This document shows, one piece after another, positions 29,228-36,931 of a DNA stretch of 36,944 bases. Made by a program: the position numbers and the translations under genes. The DNA is taken from positions 1 to 36,944 of the forward strand of contig MFRQ01000138.1 in assembly GCA_001784615.1 (NCBI GenBank). The letters run 5' to 3'. This DNA is from Candidatus Melainabacteria bacterium RIFOXYA2_FULL_32_9 (GTDB lineage Bacteria > Cyanobacteriota > Vampirovibrionia > Gastranaerophilales > UBA9579). The number at the start of each line of letters is the position of its first letter. The stretch's first letter is position 1. The notes beneath the pieces are model-generated. The model was not told the DNA's origin, made no database searches, and saw nothing but the letters and a program-made list of their open reading frames with translations.

Positions 29228-30778
29228 TCAACCAAAAACTCTGTCTAAAGTTCTATATTGAATGGCTTCTGCAATATGATAAGCTTCTATATCTTTTTCC
29301 CCCTGAAGATCAGAGATAGTTCTTGATAACTTAAGTATTCTATCATAAGCTCTTGCGGAAAGGTTTAGTCTTGAAATAGCGTTTCTTAGCATATTTTCAG
29401 AGTCTGTGTTTAGTTTGCAGTACTTCTTAATTAATTTTGGAGTCATTTGTGAGTTCGAAACCATATTCTCATCTTTAAATCTACTAACCTGAATTTCGGT
29501 TGCTTTAATTACTCGTTCTCTTACGGTTTTTGAAATTTCTCCTGATGGAGAATGATTCAGTAATTCTTCTTCTTTAAGTCTTGGAACGTCAATTTGAATA
29601 TCTATTCTATCAAGTAATGGGCCGGATAATCTTGACCAATAACGCTTTGCCTGAAAATCATTGCAGGAACACTGTTTTGTAGTATCTCCATAATATCCAC
29701 AAGGACAAGGATTCATTGCTGCCAGCAAGATAAAATCAGCCGGATACTTAACACTAATTTGTGCTCTTGAAATTACTACATTACCATCTTCAAGAGGTTG
29801 CCTTAAAACTTCCAAGACATTTCTTGGAAATTCAACTACTTCATCGAGAAACAAAACACCCCTATGTGCAAGACTTATTTCACCTGGTTTTGGATTTGTT
29901 CCCCCACCTATTATTCCAACTGATGAAGCAGAATGGTGAGGTGATCTAAAAGGTCTAACAGTTACCAGAGGAGTATTTTTATCTAACAAACCGGCTACAC
30001 TGTAAACTTTTGATAGTTCAATAGCTTCACTAATCTCAAGAGGAGGTAATATACCCGAAAAACCTTTAGCAAGAAGTGTTTTTCCAGCCCCAGGAGTTCC
30101 TACCATAAGGATATTATGGCCACCGGCCGCAGCTAACTCTAATGCTCTCTTGGCTTTTTCCTGTCCTTTTATATCCTGAAAATCTACAAAAACCTGTTCT
30201 TGAGAATTTTCTCTTAAATATTCTCTAATATTTATCTTAAAAGCTTCCAGTTTAAACTCTGAAATAACATCAGGATTTAAATAATTTATTACATCGCCTA
30301 AACATTCAGCCGGATAAACCTCTATTCCATCAATAAGAGCAGCTTCGACAGAGTTTTCTTTAGGAACTATAACTTTTCTAATACCTTCTTTTTTTAGGCA
30401 AGAAACCGTAGGTAATACCCCGTTAACACCTCTGATACTTCCATCTAAAGATAATTCACCAATAAAGCCTATATCTTTCAAATTTTCAGGATCAATATCA
30501 CCATTAGATGCTAAAACGCCAATAGCCATAGGCAAATCAAAGCCTGATCCTTCTTTTTTTATATCGGCAGGAGCGAGGTTTATGACGATTTTCTTTGTAG
30601 GAAAAGAATATCCGGAATTTTTTATTGCTGATCTAATTCTTTCTTTGGCTTCTGAAACAGCAGTATCAGGAAGTCCAACAATGGTTAAACCGGGAAGAGA
30701 TTGATTTGTATCGACTTCTACAGTAATTTTATAGCCATCAATACCAATAACAGAACCGGTAAACACATTTGCTATCAT
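29228..30778 (-). CDS. comM: ComM/YifB family Mg-chelatase-like AAA+ ATPase
   Basis: ComM is a branch-migration helicase that helps integrate DNA taken up in transformation; YifB-type homologues are widespread. The N-terminal Lon-protease-like domain has GLPDTAVSEAKERIRSAIKN and INLAPADIKKEGSGFDLP. The ATPase domain has Walker A GTPGAGKT (227-234), FRSPHHSAS, Walker B VLFLDEVVEF (D312, E313) and MNPCPCGYYGD with its zinc-ribbon-like cysteines. LSGPLLDRIDIQIDVPR and the C-terminal LSARAYDRILKLSRTISDL complete the family. At 516 residues it is full length. TAGGAC precedes ATG. Confidence 0.95.
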   Translation of the reverse strand: MIANVFTGSVIGIDGYKITVEVDTNQSLPGLTIVGLPDTAVSEAKERIRSAIKNSGYSFPTKKIVINLAPADIKKEGSGFDLPMAIGVLASNGDIDPENLKDIGFIGELSLDGSIRGVNGVLPTVSCLKKEGIRKVIVPKENSVEAALIDGIEVYPAECLGDVINYLNPDVISEFKLEAFKINIREYLRENSQEQVFVDFQDIKGQEKAKRALELAAAGGHNILMVGTPGAGKTLLAKGFSGILPPLEISEAIELSKVYSVAGLLDKNTPLVTVRPFRSPHHSASSVGIIGGGTNPKPGEISLAHRGVLFLDEVVEFPRNVLEVLRQPLEDGNVVISRAQISVKYPADFILLAAMNPCPCGYYGDTTKQCSCNDFQAKRYWSRLSGPLLDRIDIQIDVPRLKEEELLNHSPSGEISKTVRERVIKATEIQVSRFKDENMVSNSQMTPKLIKKYCKLNTDSENMLRNAISRLNLSARAYDRILKLSRTISDLQGEKDIEAYHIAEAIQYRTLDRVFG

Positions 30779-30914: not shown

Positions 30915-31376
30915 ATGTCCAGAGTGGAGCAATTAGTAGAAAAATATAGAAAAAAACTACTAGTTGATGAAAAAGTTGAAAAATACAAAATGGAAATTAT
31001 AAATCCTCTTGCTGATAAAGTATTTTCCAATGATTTTGCAGGCATTTTTTGTGATTTAGCAAGTGAAATCAATGATAAACTTGGATGTAAAATTATTTCA
31101 TACCAACAAGAAGGTAAAAACCGTTTTGTTATCGAAGGACAGCATCATAGAATATATTTTCAAAGAAGTAAGCCCGATGTTTCAGACGGAATTGCAGGAA
31201 TACATATCGTCCCTATTTATATATGGAAAGGAGTAACAAAACATCTCAGCCCTATTTTCTTTTTCATAGAACCAGATTCAAGAGAAGTCAGATGGGATAT
31301 ATCATTTGGTAGTGTTGAAGATTACATTACTACATTATTTAGTAACCTCGTTGATGATAAAGATTTTTTCATGTAA
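30915..31376 (+). CDS. Unknown soluble protein (153 residues)
   Basis: I do not recognise this protein. Start ATG 30915 has AAAGGA 7-8 bases upstream. The sequence begins with a charged helix (VEQLVEKYRKKLLVDEKVEK). A mixed alpha/beta domain follows, with CKIISYQQEGKNRFVIEG, HHRIYFQRSKP and IHIVPIYIWKGVTKHL, then an acidic end (FSNLVDDKDFF). There is no signal peptide or membrane segment. It lies 60 bases before the HerA-like fusion gene on the same strand, with no terminator between, so a shared transcript is likely and it may be a partner of that protein. Confidence 0.75.
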   Translation: MSRVEQLVEKYRKKLLVDEKVEKYKMEIINPLADKVFSNDFAGIFCDLASEINDKLGCKIISYQQEGKNRFVIEGQHHRIYFQRSKPDVSDGIAGIHIVPIYIWKGVTKHLSPIFFFIEPDSREVRWDISFGSVEDYITTLFSNLVDDKDFFM

Positions 31377-31436: not shown

Positions 31437-33449
31437 ATGTTAATCGGAGCAATTAATAATGACATTATAAAAATCCTCTTTAATACACAAAAAGAGGAGC
31501 TTTTACTTGGTAATCTAATCAAAATTATCAATGAAGAGAATAATGGTGTCATAGCTCAAGTTTTTGGTATAGAAAATTCTAAAAAAACAGCCTCAAATAA
31601 TATTGCAAATGTCAAAATCTTACTTACTTTAAAACAGTCTAATAAATGGTACGAATGGGAAGGAAACATTCCTTCAAAAGAGTTTAAAGTTGAAAAGGTT
31701 TCAAATAAAGAATTAATATCTTATATAAGTGGTTTAAAACAAAAAAACCCTGTTACTTTAGGATATTTATCTCTATATGATAATGCTAAACTTGATATAG
31801 AAGCAGCAAATTTTGAAAATCCTACAGTAATTCTCAGTGATAAACAATATCAAAGGGTTAATACTTCATATTTATTAGCTCAAGAATTGGTTAATAATCA
31901 AGCAAAGGTTGTTCTCTTTGACTTTACCGGAGAATATTCTCATATAACAACAGCAAACAGACTGGAAGCAGGAAGAAATTTCAAACTCCCTCTTAACTCA
32001 AAAGGTGTAGAAAGTATATATGATAAAAGTCTGGTCAATGTTTCTGCTGAAACCAGAGCAATTATCGAAGATATTTTTATGAGTCTTCAGGAATATATAG
32101 AAGAAAGCAAACTAGGATTTATTCCTTTCACGCATTTTAAAAAAGTTGTAAATGATGAATATGAAGAAAATAGAACTACAGAGCTGATTTTACTTAGAAA
32201 TAAGCTTACAAAGATTGAGAAACAAAATATTTTTGCCAATAATAAATTTGAAACAGAATCTTTCAAGATGTGTATCAAAAACACAGATTTCATTATAGTT
32301 GATTTCTCTAGAATTTCTTCTAGTTGGCATAAGAATTTTGTTGATTACATTATAGATCTCAATATTGAAGATTATAATCAGCGCTTTTTTGTTATATTTA
32401 ATGCAAATGAAACAAATATTGATTCGGATTTAATTACTAAACTCTACATTCAAGGCTATAGAAGTGGTATAAAACCTATTGTTTCTGTTGATTATAAGTC
32501 AAAATATTTCAATAATGTCCTTTCTGTAGCTAAAAATATGATTATGTATTCTCCAGAAATTAATTCAAATAAATTATCGAATTTTGAAGTTTTTCTAAAC
32601 AAATTAAATAGCAAAGAAGCTTTACTTTATGGAGATATAACCCAATCAATTCCTTTAATAGTAAGAATTGATAATATTTCCTCTGAATTTGAATATAAAG
32701 AGAATAAGAGGATTTTTGAAAATTCTTTTATAGAAGCTCCTGAACTTGAAATAATAGAAAATCCAAAACAAAAAGATAAAATAAATAAGGTTGAAATTCA
32801 TAATAAAGAAGATAATTTTGAAGAAATAAAAAACCCTCAAAAAGAAGAAATACATATTGATCAGGAAGCTAACGAGGATTATTTCCTTGATATTATTTAC
32901 AATGAAACAGATGAAAATAAAGATTACCAATTTGCAGATGATTTATTGCAAGAAGAAAATACAAAAATAGATGAAGAATATAGTTATATAGATGGCAGTC
33001 TGGATTTTGATTATACAGAAGAAGACCTTGAAGAGTTTCAAAAAACCCAAAGTCATGTTAATGATAACAATGAAGATCTTTTCCAGGAAGAATATATTGA
33101 AATGCCTGATTATGTTGAAGATGATAATAGTGAAAATTCTTATCTTGTATCAGTAAACGAAGTGTCTAATATAGAAGAAGCTTTAACAGAAGAGTTTTCA
33201 AATACAAATAATGATTATAATGAAACTCCTTCAGCAGATATACCTATTTATTCTACAGTTAGCCCTGAGAGTATTGAAGAAGAACAAATAATTTTCAATG
33301 AAGGAGATGCAGTTAAACACAATAAGTATGGCCTAGGCGTTATAAAGAAAGTCATAGGCTACGGAAACAAAAAACTTTGTAGTATTCAGTTTGAAAACAT
33401 TGGAAGAAGACTTCTTGATCCAACTTTAACTGTTTTAGAAAAAATCTAA
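31437..33449 (+). CDS. HerA-like (pseudo)ATPase fused to an acidic linker and a UvrD/PcrA-type C-terminal Tudor-like domain
   Basis: A 670-residue protein of unusual build. Residues 1-95 look like the HAS-barrel start of HerA/FtsK-like ATPases (MLIGAINNDI...GNLIKI, GVIAQVFG). At 130-170 the order of a HerA P-loop and Walker B is recognisable: VILSDKQYQRVNTSYLLAQE then VVLFDFTGEYSH, matching HerA's DxxGEY. The glycines and GKS/T of a working P-loop are missing, so ATP hydrolysis is doubtful. Residues about 430-615 are a very acidic, disordered linker rich in Glu, Asp and Tyr. Residues 623-670 (GDAVKHNKYGLGVIKKV, then LCSIQFENIGRRLLD) match the Tudor-like tail of UvrD/PcrA helicases, which in those proteins contacts RNA polymerase. 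A role at transcription or DNA is inferred, not shown. Confidence 0.6.
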   Translation: MLIGAINNDIIKILFNTQKEELLLGNLIKIINEENNGVIAQVFGIENSKKTASNNIANVKILLTLKQSNKWYEWEGNIPSKEFKVEKVSNKELISYISGLKQKNPVTLGYLSLYDNAKLDIEAANFENPTVILSDKQYQRVNTSYLLAQELVNNQAKVVLFDFTGEYSHITTANRLEAGRNFKLPLNSKGVESIYDKSLVNVSAETRAIIEDIFMSLQEYIEESKLGFIPFTHFKKVVNDEYEENRTTELILLRNKLTKIEKQNIFANNKFETESFKMCIKNTDFIIVDFSRISSSWHKNFVDYIIDLNIEDYNQRFFVIFNANETNIDSDLITKLYIQGYRSGIKPIVSVDYKSKYFNNVLSVAKNMIMYSPEINSNKLSNFEVFLNKLNSKEALLYGDITQSIPLIVRIDNISSEFEYKENKRIFENSFIEAPELEIIENPKQKDKINKVEIHNKEDNFEEIKNPQKEEIHIDQEANEDYFLDIIYNETDENKDYQFADDLLQEENTKIDEEYSYIDGSLDFDYTEEDLEEFQKTQSHVNDNNEDLFQEEYIEMPDYVEDDNSENSYLVSVNEVSNIEEALTEEFSNTNNDYNETPSADIPIYSTVSPESIEEEQIIFNEGDAVKHNKYGLGVIKKVIGYGNKKLCSIQFENIGRRLLDPTLTVLEKI

Positions 33450-33942: not shown

Positions 33943-35316
33943 TTGAAAAACAAAATCTTTATCATTGCTCTTGCTTTACTTGTTTCATCCACACCAAGCG
34001 TTTTAGCTAAGAGCACAACAGTGCAGGAAATTCAGGATTTGCCTTCAAAAAGCTCAAGCAAAGCAACTTCTGATAAGTCAATTCCAAGTGATCATTGGGC
34101 TTACAAAACATTAGAAGATATTTCAAAGAAATATGGTCTATTAATGGGTAAGCCTACTGAAAAATTCAACGGATCAGGAACTTTAACTCGTAATGAGGCA
34201 GCTTTTATTTTTGTTAACCTTATTGGCAAGATAGAAAAAGATCAAGTACAACTCAGTGAATCAGAGAAAACAAGGCTCGAAATCTTAAAACAGGAATTAA
34301 AAGGTGAATTAGGAGAGTTGACAAGTAAAGTTGCATCATTAGAAACATCAGTTGATTCCCTAAAAGGCAGTGTATCCAATCTTGAGGAAGAAAACAAAAA
34401 AGATTGGAAGTTTGATTATGGTGAAAAATTCAAAATTAATGGAGGTCTCCAGGCTCAATTTACAGGAAACTTTAAAAAAGGTGATGATCAATATCCATCC
34501 AATTTTGCTTTACCATATTCAGAAATTCGCTTTAGCGGAAAAATGAACCCTAAAGTTGGATATGTAGCTGCTTTAGTTCCTACAAGAGCTTTTGACGGTT
34601 CGGAAAAGGGTGTTTTAAGAGAAGCTTATGCTACATTAGATGTAATTCCACATCATACCGTCTATCTTGGACAAAACATGGTTCCAATCGGCTATGAAGG
34701 ACCACAAAACCCAATGGCCATAGAAACAATAGATAAAGCTCAAATGTCTAGAAAATTAACTGATATGCCCGATCTTGGTGTAAAAGCTGAAGGTAATTGG
34801 GACTTCTTTTCTTATTCACTTGGAGCTTATAACGGTAATGGTCAAAACACAGCTGATTCAAACAGTCACTTAGCATTAGCAAGCTGGGCTACAGTAAAAC
34901 CTCTTTATAAATATCCACAGCTTGGTAAATTGGAATTAGGTGGTGGATGTTATACAGGTAATAACGGCAGTTACAACAAAGACATTTTAAGTTTTTACAG
35001 TGGATATAAACTTAAAAAGTTTGCACTATGGGGTGAATACTTAACTGCTAATGGTTATTTGGATTCCAAACAAAAAGCAGATAGTTTTTATCTCCATTCT
35101 TCTTACTACTTAACTAACAAGTTGCAATTATTGGCAAGATTTGACCAATTTGATCCAAATACCAAGGTTAAGAAAAATCTTAACAGAGAATACACAGTTG
35201 GTGGAAACTACCTGTTACGTGACAATTTATCTCTAATGATGGGTCTAGTGCAAGTAGCAAATCAAGAAGGTAGAAACAGCCAAAGATTAGAAGCTCTAAC
35301 TCAAATTATGTTCTAA
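33943..35316 (+). CDS. SLH-domain outer-membrane porin (OprB/OprP-like)
   Basis: A 457-residue outer-membrane channel. The start is TTG, fixed by AAGGAG 7-8 bases upstream and by the signal peptide that follows (MKNKIFIIALALLVSS, cleavage near VLA-K at 22). Residues 47-97 are an SLH domain (DHWAYKTLEDISKKYGLL, ending in TLTRNEAAFIFVNLI), which in cyanobacterial porins binds peptidoglycan-linked polymer. Residues 103-152 are a coiled coil, the usual periplasmic spacer. From about 160 a beta-barrel follows, with a phosphate-selective-porin look (YLGQNMVPIGYEG, LGVKAEGNWDFFSYSLGAYN) and a C-terminal Phe (QIMF) as the outer-membrane insertion signal. The substrate is unknown. Expression may depend on read-through of the terminator at 33850. 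Confidence 0.9.
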   Translation: MKNKIFIIALALLVSSTPSVLAKSTTVQEIQDLPSKSSSKATSDKSIPSDHWAYKTLEDISKKYGLLMGKPTEKFNGSGTLTRNEAAFIFVNLIGKIEKDQVQLSESEKTRLEILKQELKGELGELTSKVASLETSVDSLKGSVSNLEEENKKDWKFDYGEKFKINGGLQAQFTGNFKKGDDQYPSNFALPYSEIRFSGKMNPKVGYVAALVPTRAFDGSEKGVLREAYATLDVIPHHTVYLGQNMVPIGYEGPQNPMAIETIDKAQMSRKLTDMPDLGVKAEGNWDFFSYSLGAYNGNGQNTADSNSHLALASWATVKPLYKYPQLGKLELGGGCYTGNNGSYNKDILSFYSGYKLKKFALWGEYLTANGYLDSKQKADSFYLHSSYYLTNKLQLLARFDQFDPNTKVKKNLNREYTVGGNYLLRDNLSLMMGLVQVANQEGRNSQRLEALTQIMF

Positions 35317-35322
35317 AAAAAA

Positions 35323-35345
35323 CTACAAGAAATATTATCTTGTAG
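35323..35345. repeat. Hairpin after the porin gene
   Basis: CTACAAGA and TCTTGTAG pair over a 7-base loop. No T-run follows on the plus strand (CCCAAAAAA), so it is a poor intrinsic terminator for the porin; it may protect the mRNA 3' end. Confidence 0.5.
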
Positions 35346-35403
35346 CCCAAAAAATTATCATTTTATTGTTTATATCTTAAAATTGAGAATTTTACAATCC
35401 TTT

Positions 35404-35431
35404 TTGAGTGGATTTAGTACAATTTTAATCT
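35404..35431 (+). promoter_or_regulatory. Candidate promoter of the ammonium transporter gene
   Basis: TTGAGT (35404-35409), 16-bp spacer, TAATCT (35426-35431), 60 bases before ATG. No NtcA-type GTA-N8-TAC site is apparent. Confidence 0.3.
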
Positions 35432-35491
35432 TTTTTATTCAAAAATATCTCAATTTTGCAAAAATTCTATAAAAATCATAAGGAGGAAAAA

Positions 35492-36931
35492 ATGATCGAA
35501 AGTTTTTTTGATAATGTACTCAAAATATCAATAAAAAACAAAAAGGCTTATTTAATAGCCTTATTAGTCGGAATATTACTTATTACAGGTTTAACGTTTT
35601 TAGGAAATGAAGCATTTGCAGAAAATGCAACGCAAGCAACTACAACTCCTGCAATTGTTACACCTCCAAATCCACAAGAACAATCTTCGGCTGAACTTAC
35701 ACCCCCAAGTGTGGATCCCGGTGATACCGCTTGGATGTTAATATCTACAGCACTTGTTATGTTGATGACTCCAGGATTAGCTCTTTTTTACAGTGGAATG
35801 GTAAGACGTAAAAACGCTCTTGGAACAATAATGCAAAGTTTCATAGCCCTTGGTCTTGTCACAATACTCTGGGTTCTTTATGGATATAGTTTAGCTTTTG
35901 GTCCAGATATAGGGCATCTTATAGGAAGTCTAAAATGGGCTGGATTAACAGATGTAGGACTTACTCCGAATCCTGATTATGCTGCTACAATTCCTCATCA
36001 AGCATTTATGATATTTCAAATGATGTTTGCTATTATTACTCCAGCTCTTATAACAGGTGCTTTTGCTGAAAGATTTAAATTTAGCACTTATTTAATTTTT
36101 GTTGCTATCTGGCTTACCATTGTTTATTGTCCAATTGCTCATTGGGTATGGGGAATTGGTGGCTGGATAAGAGAACTTGGTGCTCTTGATTTTGCTGGTG
36201 GCTTAGTAGTACATATAAGTTCTGGTGTTTCAGCATTAGCTGCTGCAATTATAGTTGGAAAAAGAAAAGGTTATAATACTGAACCAATGCCTCCTCATAA
36301 TTTAACAATGACTCTTCTTGGTGCTGCTTTATTATGGTTTGGTTGGTTCGGTTTTAATGCCGGAAGCTCTTTAGCTGCTGGCTCTCTTGCGACATCAGCG
36401 TTTGTTGTTACACATATTGCTACTGCGGCTGCAACACTATCTTGGCTGTTTATTGAATGGATACATAGAGGTAAACCAACAGCTCTTGGTGCTGCATCAG
36501 GTGCTGTTGCTGGTTTAGTTGCAATAACCCCAGCTTCAGGCTTTGTTGCTCCATTACCAGCAATTATAATTGGACTTTTTGCAGGAATGATATGTTATGC
36601 AGCTGTTAATCTTAAAACCAAGCTTGGCTATGATGATTCACTTGATGCTGTTGGTGTTCATGGTGTTGGTGGCATCTGGGGAGCTATAGCCACAGGTTTA
36701 TTTGCAACTACTGCTATTAATTCTTTTGGAGCTGATGGTTTATTTTATGGTAATCCCGATCTCCTTGTAAAGCAGTTGATAAGCATTGTTGCAGCTGCAA
36801 CTTATGCATTCATTGTTACTTTCATTATCTTAAAAGCTCTTGATGTAATAATGGGACTAAGAGTTACAACTGAAGAAGAAACCACCGGTCTTGATCTTAG
36901 TCAGCATGGTGAAAGAGGATACGTGTTATAA
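35492..36931 (+). CDS. amt: Ammonium transporter Amt
   Basis: A membrane channel for ammonium uptake, 479 residues from ATG 35492, which follows AAGGAGG by 6 bases; the upstream in-frame TTG at 35456 has no such site. An N-terminal hydrophobic signal segment (about 20-38, cleavage near AFA-EN at 43) and a Pro/Thr-rich linker precede the eleven-helix Amt core, which begins DTAWMLISTALVMLMTPGLA. The twin pore histidines are H241 (GGLVVHISSG) and H390 (DAVGVHGVGG). D233, eight residues before the first His, matches the essential Asp of E. coli AmtB. LDFAGGLVVHISSGVSALAA is the family signature. A partner PII gene (glnK) often follows amt, but the window ends here. Confidence 0.96.
   Translation: MIESFFDNVLKISIKNKKAYLIALLVGILLITGLTFLGNEAFAENATQATTTPAIVTPPNPQEQSSAELTPPSVDPGDTAWMLISTALVMLMTPGLALFYSGMVRRKNALGTIMQSFIALGLVTILWVLYGYSLAFGPDIGHLIGSLKWAGLTDVGLTPNPDYAATIPHQAFMIFQMMFAIITPALITGAFAERFKFSTYLIFVAIWLTIVYCPIAHWVWGIGGWIRELGALDFAGGLVVHISSGVSALAAAIIVGKRKGYNTEPMPPHNLTMTLLGAALLWFGWFGFNAGSSLAAGSLATSAFVVTHIATAAATLSWLFIEWIHRGKPTALGAASGAVAGLVAITPASGFVAPLPAIIIGLFAGMICYAAVNLKTKLGYDDSLDAVGVHGVGGIWGAIATGLFATTAINSFGADGLFYGNPDLLVKQLISIVAAATYAFIVTFIILKALDVIMGLRVTTEEETTGLDLSQHGERGYVL

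What the first reader, a model, noticed from the sequence alone, without database searches (positions are those of the whole stretch)
31437..33449. HerA-like pseudo-ATPase fused to a UvrD/PcrA-type Tudor tail
The order HAS-barrel-like start, P-loop position and DFTGEY Walker B-like strand resembles HerA. The P-loop lacks GxxGxGK[ST], and the last 48 residues look like the RNA-polymerase-binding tail of UvrD/PcrA after a long acidic, Tyr-rich linker. I know of no named family with this combination. A non-hydrolysing clamp or adaptor that joins transcription and DNA repair would be new. The small gene at 30915-31376 just upstream may be its partner.
Basis: partly seen in the sequence, partly recalled or inferred. 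Interest (0 to 1): 0.68.

Follow-up and report, generated by a model that had tools for sequence, protein, structure and literature searches.

The report
Dead HerA motor with PcrA tail
A gene found in nearly every sampled genome of one order of non-photosynthetic cyanobacterial relatives (Gastranaerophilales) makes a DNA-motor-shaped protein that has lost its ATP-binding loop and ends in the docking domain that repair helicases use to reach RNA polymerase or UvrB, so it probably acts as a fixed adaptor rather than a motor.

Summary
The 670-aa ORF at 31437-33449 has a HerA-fold body (AlphaFold2 pLDDT 92; the listed top 50 PDB fold matches are HerA or HerA complexes), an acidic linker and a PcrA/UvrD-type Tudor tail. 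Orthologues occur in 59 of 60 sampled relatives, about one per genome, only within Gastranaerophilales as far as inspected. In 79 aligned members no glycine-rich P-loop survives, while D162 (= D176 of Sulfolobus HerA) is invariant. Body and tail are under strong purifying selection (dN/dS 0.03-0.08 and 0-0.03). Residues equivalent to W684, K712 and L714 of PcrA, each needed for RNA-polymerase binding, are kept as Y, R and L in 78-79 members. New: a conserved LTEDDLNFI-like linker motif (71/79); the sister order keeps intact HerA and NurA instead; RpoB of this phylum lacks the SI1 hairpin that PcrA's tail binds in Bacillus, whereas UvrB mostly keeps such a hairpin. Corrections: DFTGEY is HerA's D176 motif, not Walker B; the upstream gene is an optional neighbour. 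Best reading: a non-hydrolysing HerA-fold adaptor docking on PcrA-type partners (UvrB and/or RNA polymerase). Function is inferred, not shown.

The parts
31437..33449 (+). 670-aa inactive HerA-fold protein with PcrA-type Tudor tail (P0001)
   Evidence: ORF and translation; 59 of 60 relatives hold an orthologue
31437..31730 (+). residues 1-98: HAS-barrel-like N-terminal beta barrel
   Evidence: seven strands in the AF2 model; profile alignment to intact HerA starts at residue 7-10
31731..32711 (+). residues 99-425: RecA-like HerA core with helical insertion (about residues 188-282)
   Evidence: AF2 model and Foldseek to HerA 8xau and 4d2i
31836..31859 (+). residues 134-141 (SDKQYQRV): position of the lost P-loop (ATGSGKS in Sulfolobus HerA)
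   Evidence: ungapped profile alignment; column counts in 79 members
31920..31937 (+). residues 162-167 (DFTGEY): D162 equals HerA D176, invariant
   Evidence: role of D176 from PMC4351679
32712..33290 (+). residues 426-618: acidic linker, presumed disordered
   Evidence: 32% D/E and 6% K/R in residues 426-601; length 96-484 aa in the family
33012..33038 (+). residues 526-534 (YTEEDLEEF): conserved linker motif, LTEDDLNFI type
   Evidence: 71 of 79 linkers against 0.4% of shuffled linkers
33291..33446 (+). residues 619-670: PcrA/UvrD-type Tudor domain
   Evidence: Pfam PF21196; PDB 9dqs, 6yi2, 7egs
30915..31376 (+). 153-aa neighbour gene (P0002): helix plus antiparallel sheet, no known relative in the libraries searched; optional
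29228..30778 (-). divergent ComM/YifB-type Mg-chelatase-like ATPase; neighbour, not claimed as part of the system
   Evidence: Pfam; also next to the gene in several families of the order

Best explanation
The protein is a HerA homologue that has lost ATP binding by the P-loop and is kept as a non-hydrolysing scaffold. Its HAS-barrel and RecA-like body, possibly still a ring or other oligomer on DNA, is tethered by a long acidic linker to a PcrA-type Tudor domain. The Tudor docks on the proteins PcrA docks on through TGE hairpins: UvrB, and/or RNA polymerase at a site other than the Bacillus SI1 hairpin. It thus holds a passive HerA-fold platform at excision-repair or transcription complexes, sharing or competing for PcrA's docking site. 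Shown by computation: fold, loss of the P-loop, tail family and its conserved contact residues, purifying selection, order-wide presence. Inferred: oligomer, DNA binding, partner identity, biological outcome.
For: Fold. P-loop lost in 79 of 79. Tail: Pfam and PDB matches. Contact residues: Y 79/79, R 78/78, L 78/78, H 63/79, against the mutational data in PMC5397179. Purifying selection on body and tail. About one copy per genome, 59 of 60 relatives. UvrB keeps a TGE/SGE hairpin in 9 of 10 genomes read. The tail resembles PcrA tails of the sister order and phylum more than the order's own PcrA tails do (median 58 against 48 bits). The order's PcrA tails have L instead of an aromatic at the W684 position in 11 of 25.
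Against: RpoB of this order, the sister order and one photosynthetic cyanobacterium lacks the SI1 hairpin bound by PcrA in Bacillus, so RNA-polymerase docking cannot be assumed. No oligomer or complex was modelled. D162 invariance and a K in 24 of 79 at the K154 position leave some form of nucleotide binding open. The gene neighbourhood in the main gut family (nadD-yqeK) does not point to repair.
Confidence: 0.5

Rival explanations
1. The body still binds and perhaps hydrolyses a nucleotide through an unusual loop (D162 plus a lysine at position 140 in some members) and remains a slow switch or motor.
For: D162 invariant in 79 of 79; K or R at the K154 position in 27 of 79. The same genome has a second HerA-like protein with an atypical loop GVSGLATKTS and intact VDE and AQQ motifs, so odd loops need not mean dead.
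Against: Glycine is not among the common residues at the G151 and G153 positions; T is the commonest residue at K154 (40 of 79) and no GK[ST] occurs. K154R abolished ATPase in Sulfolobus HerA (PMC4351679).
Confidence: 0.17
2. It is a decoy or regulator of PcrA: its Tudor occupies PcrA's docking sites and keeps the helicase away, the HerA-fold body being only a scaffold.
For: Same tail family in both proteins of one genome; free UvrB competes with RNA polymerase for PcrA's tail (PMC8318588), so such sites are exclusive.
Against: The body is under selection as strong as expected for a working domain (dN/dS 0.03-0.08), more than a mere scaffold would need; the order's PcrA tails have themselves drifted.
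Confidence: 0.18
3. It is an adaptor whose tail no longer binds RNA polymerase or UvrB but another partner, with the linker motif LTEDDLNFI as a second docking site; the work concerns another process, such as NAD or nucleotide stress control near nadD-yqeK.
For: Linker motif in 71 of 79; nadD-yqeK directly upstream in most loci of the main gut family (Pfam).
Against: The neighbourhood changes between families, while the PcrA-type contact residues do not.
Confidence: 0.15

Closest known systems
HerA DNA translocase (DUF87; e.g. Sulfolobus HerA 4d2i)
   Same: HAS-barrel and RecA-like core with the D176 motif; strong fold match
   Different: P-loop lost in every member; no NurA beside it; extra linker and Tudor tail
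PcrA/UvrD C-terminal Tudor domain (PF21196; 5dma, 9dqs, 7egs)
   Same: same position at the C-terminus after a linker; contact residues W684, K712 and L714 kept as Y, R and L
   Different: attached to a HerA fold instead of an SF1 helicase
Bacterial HerA partners in defence (SIR2-HerA, DUF4297-HerA)
   Same: HerA-fold subunit, among the best structural matches
   Different: no adjacent effector seen; no PADLOC match; found across an order and about one per genome
Mfd and CarD RNA-polymerase-interacting domain (PF02559)
   Same: Tudor-like fold that binds RpoB
   Different: weaker profile match than PcrA_UvrD_tudor (0.054 against 6e-5)

Membership tests
HerA (DUF87) | HAS-barrel plus RecA-like HerA fold | tested here: met
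   AF2 and Foldseek; DUF87 over the cut-off
HerA (DUF87) | Walker A P-loop with lysine (K154) | tested here: not met
   0 of 79 have GK[ST] in the region; ungapped alignment
HerA (DUF87) | D176 after the second strand | tested here: met
   D162 invariant, 79 of 79
HerA (DUF87) | Walker B glutamate (E356) and arginine finger (R381) | tested here: inconclusive
   profile alignment did not reach this part; no conserved acidic pair at the likely strand, residues 317-322
HerA (DUF87) | nuclease partner NurA encoded nearby | tested here: not met
   NurA absent beside it; weak NurA-like protein only at G000:C5 next to another HerA-like gene
HerA (DUF87) | hexameric ring on DNA | not testable with these tools
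   no complex prediction was available
PcrA/UvrD Tudor domain | profile match to PF21196 | tested here: met
   20 of 23 members at E<=0.01; own copy over the cut-off, just under it
PcrA/UvrD Tudor domain | residues required for RNA-polymerase binding (H681, W684, K712, L714) | tested here: met
   H or T, Y, R, L in 78-79 members, i.e. conservative equivalents; mutational data from PMC5397179
PcrA/UvrD helicase | SF1 helicase core | tested here: not met
   no helicase match in Pfam; HerA fold instead
PcrA-RNA polymerase docking | helicase interaction motif in the SI1 part of RpoB | tested here: not met
   SI1 hairpin absent in 8 RpoB read, including 5 of the order
PcrA-UvrB docking | helicase interaction motif in UvrB | tested here: met
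   TGE or SGE hairpin in 9 of 10 UvrB read, strict motif in 5; binding itself not tested

The most novel reading that the evidence does not exclude
An order-wide, catalytically dead HerA ring that took over PcrA's docking tail and now links excision repair (UvrB) with transcription, while the order's own PcrA tail drifted: a transcription-repair adaptor built from a retired DNA motor.
Probability: 0.28. Interest if true: 0.85.

Novelty: new variant of a known kind. Interest (0 to 1): 0.6.

Why it matters
HerA-fold proteins are known as active DNA motors in repair and phage defence. A member that has lost its ATP-binding loop but is retained across a whole bacterial order under strong selection, and that carries the docking domain of another repair helicase, would show how a motor can be turned into an adaptor. 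It also makes a direct test possible of what PcrA-type Tudor domains bind in a lineage whose RNA polymerase lacks the known docking hairpin.

Tried and rejected
1. Partner hypothesis for the 30915 gene: rejected as obligate, found in 11 of 60 relatives (one a weak partial match), though directly upstream where its position was checked; its model has no structural match in the PDB. 2. 'Pseudo-HerA simply replaces HerA-NurA in the whole order': rejected, because families f1, f3 and f4 keep another HerA-like protein (P0003), beside a NurA-like gene in the genome read, G000. 3. 'The order's PcrA tail carries a natural L714A': rejected after the register was fixed with the 5DMA numbering (K712 = R658, L714 = L660); the residue is hydrophobic (V, M, I or L) there. 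4. Decaying pseudogene: rejected by dN/dS and intact frames. 5. Defence system: no PADLOC match for this protein or its neighbour. 6. First genome-contig scan with the single protein found nothing; global hhalign gave no usable alignment. 7. No paper found that describes a HerA-Tudor fusion or a dead HerA; the library is open-access only.

Full report
WHAT IS THERE. The ORF 31437-33449 encodes 670 aa, with AGGG shortly before the ATG. The window lies in a draft genome of 2.46 Mb.

BODY. DUF87/HerA is hit at E=4.7e-8. AlphaFold2 with 60 sequences gives pLDDT 92.2 and pTM 0.89 for residues 1-425. The 50 listed PDB fold matches are HerA or HerA complexes, the best at E=8e-19 with TMq 0.76; Sulfolobus HerA 4d2i is at 2e-17. 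A profile of the body matches 4d2i by sequence, E=2.8e-6, without a gap across the P-loop: ATGSGKSN faces a non-glycine stretch of the same length. Counting back from D176 in that alignment, K154 of HerA falls on R140 here.

LOST P-LOOP. In 79 members the K154 position is T (40), K (24), S (7), R (3) or other; the G153 position is mostly N (52), Q, D or E; no member has GK[ST] there. D162, the equivalent of D176, is D in 79 of 79. K154, D176, E356 and R381 are the residues known to matter for HerA ATPase, and K154R and R381K lost ATPase activity (PMC4351679). Walker B and the arginine finger could not be aligned by profile; at the likely strand no acidic pair is conserved. This part is inconclusive.

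TAIL. PcrA_UvrD_tudor matches at 23.2 bits on the whole protein, cut-off 23.9, and 27.4 bits in the single-genome search; 20 of 23 members match. In Geobacillus PcrA, mutation of H681, W684, K712 or L714 each severely reduced RNA-polymerase binding (PMC5397179). With 5DMA as guide these are H628, Y631, R658 and L660 here. Across the family: H 63 and T 16; Y 79; R 78 of 78; L 78 of 78. A profile of seven PcrA tails from the sister order and other members of the phylum scores the family tails at a median of 58 bits and the order's own PcrA tails at 48; tails are about 50 aa, so this is suggestive only.

LINKER. Median 35% D/E and 3% K/R, 96-484 aa. A motif of LTEDDLNFI type occurs in 71 of 79 linkers against 0.4% of shuffled ones; in this protein it is YTEEDLEEF, residues 526-534. 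The pattern was written after looking at the sequences, so the shuffle figure is not a blind test.

DISTRIBUTION. 59 of 60 relatives hold the protein. In a phylum sample, genomes of the order give full-length matches, whereas the strongest matches outside the order that were inspected (five of the sister family f8, two other members of the phylum) cover only the Tudor columns, inside ORFs of PcrA/UvrD size. Weaker matches outside were not inspected. One genome of the order, 99% complete (G047), has only the PcrA tail. A public-genome scan gave 194 relatives, of which the best 80 are named Gastranaerophilales, Melainabacteria, Cyanobacteria or unnamed, apart from a few labelled Muribaculaceae or Fusobacterium, probably misassigned MAGs (inference). 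That scan required a tail pattern and would miss unlike fusions.

SELECTION. In 11 close pairs dN/dS is 0.03-0.08 for the body, 0.05-0.34 for the linker and about 0-0.03 for the tail where it can be computed.

ANCESTRY. Genomes of the sister family f8 have an intact HerA of 537-556 aa with GKSGTGKS (four of the five searched) and NurA (five of five). Profile comparison aligns the family to that HerA from the barrel through the P-loop position (E=1.9e-4; probability only 48%, perhaps because the HerA side has four close sequences). In the order, families f1, f3 and f4 also hold a different HerA-like protein, P0003, with loop GVSGLATKTS, in this genome beside a NurA-like gene and an SbcD-like gene; f6, f7 and nearly all of f2 lack it, so the family does not depend on it.

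PARTNER SITES. In Bacillus the tail binds a TGE hairpin in the SI1 part of RpoB and the same motif in UvrB (PMC8318588). RpoB of five genomes of the order, two of f8 and one photosynthetic cyanobacterium lacks SI1 with its hairpin; a TGE (SGE in one) occurs in the beta-1 region near residue 100. UvrB has a TGE or SGE hairpin in nine of ten genomes read. So the best motif-based partner is UvrB; RNA polymerase remains possible.

NEIGHBOURS. The 153-aa gene at 30915-31376 was found in 11 of 60 relatives, one of these weak and partial; in the loci read it lies 27-87 bases upstream. Its model (pLDDT 86.7) has no PDB relative. In most loci of the main gut family the upstream genes are of nadD and yqeK type.

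CONCLUSION. A HerA homologue that has lost its P-loop, fused to a PcrA-type Tudor and kept by selection across one order. The adaptor mechanism is the best-supported reading, at about 0.5; partner and outcome are inferred.

Noticed in passing
G000:C5:21733-25250 (L256:731-4247): A second HerA-like protein (P0003, 687 aa) with an atypical P-loop GVSGLATKTS but VDE and AQQ motifs, next to a NurA-like gene and an SbcD-like gene; found in families f1, f3 and f4, absent from f6, f7 and nearly all f2 genomes. DUF87 does not recognise it.
   Followed up: partly
PcrA tails of the order (L192, L213-L226 and others): The order's own PcrA Tudor tails end in DA instead of the DP of the sister order, and 11 of 25 have L where PcrA has the aromatic W684 needed for RNA-polymerase binding.
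   Followed up: partly
RpoB loci L258-L265: RpoB of this order, its sister order and one photosynthetic cyanobacterium lacks the SI1 hairpin to which PcrA docks in Bacillus, although these genomes keep PcrA-type Tudor tails.
   Followed up: partly
f2 loci, e.g. L048:6757-10193: nadD, yqeK and the dead-HerA gene follow each other on one strand in most loci of the main gut family; def and fmt follow in some.
   Followed up: no
G047 (family f2, 99% complete): The only one of 60 relatives without the gene; loss or assembly gap not decided.
   Followed up: no
window 33943-36931: An SLH-domain porin-like ORF and an ammonium-transporter-like ORF downstream of the gene; judged by eye from the translation only.
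   Followed up: no
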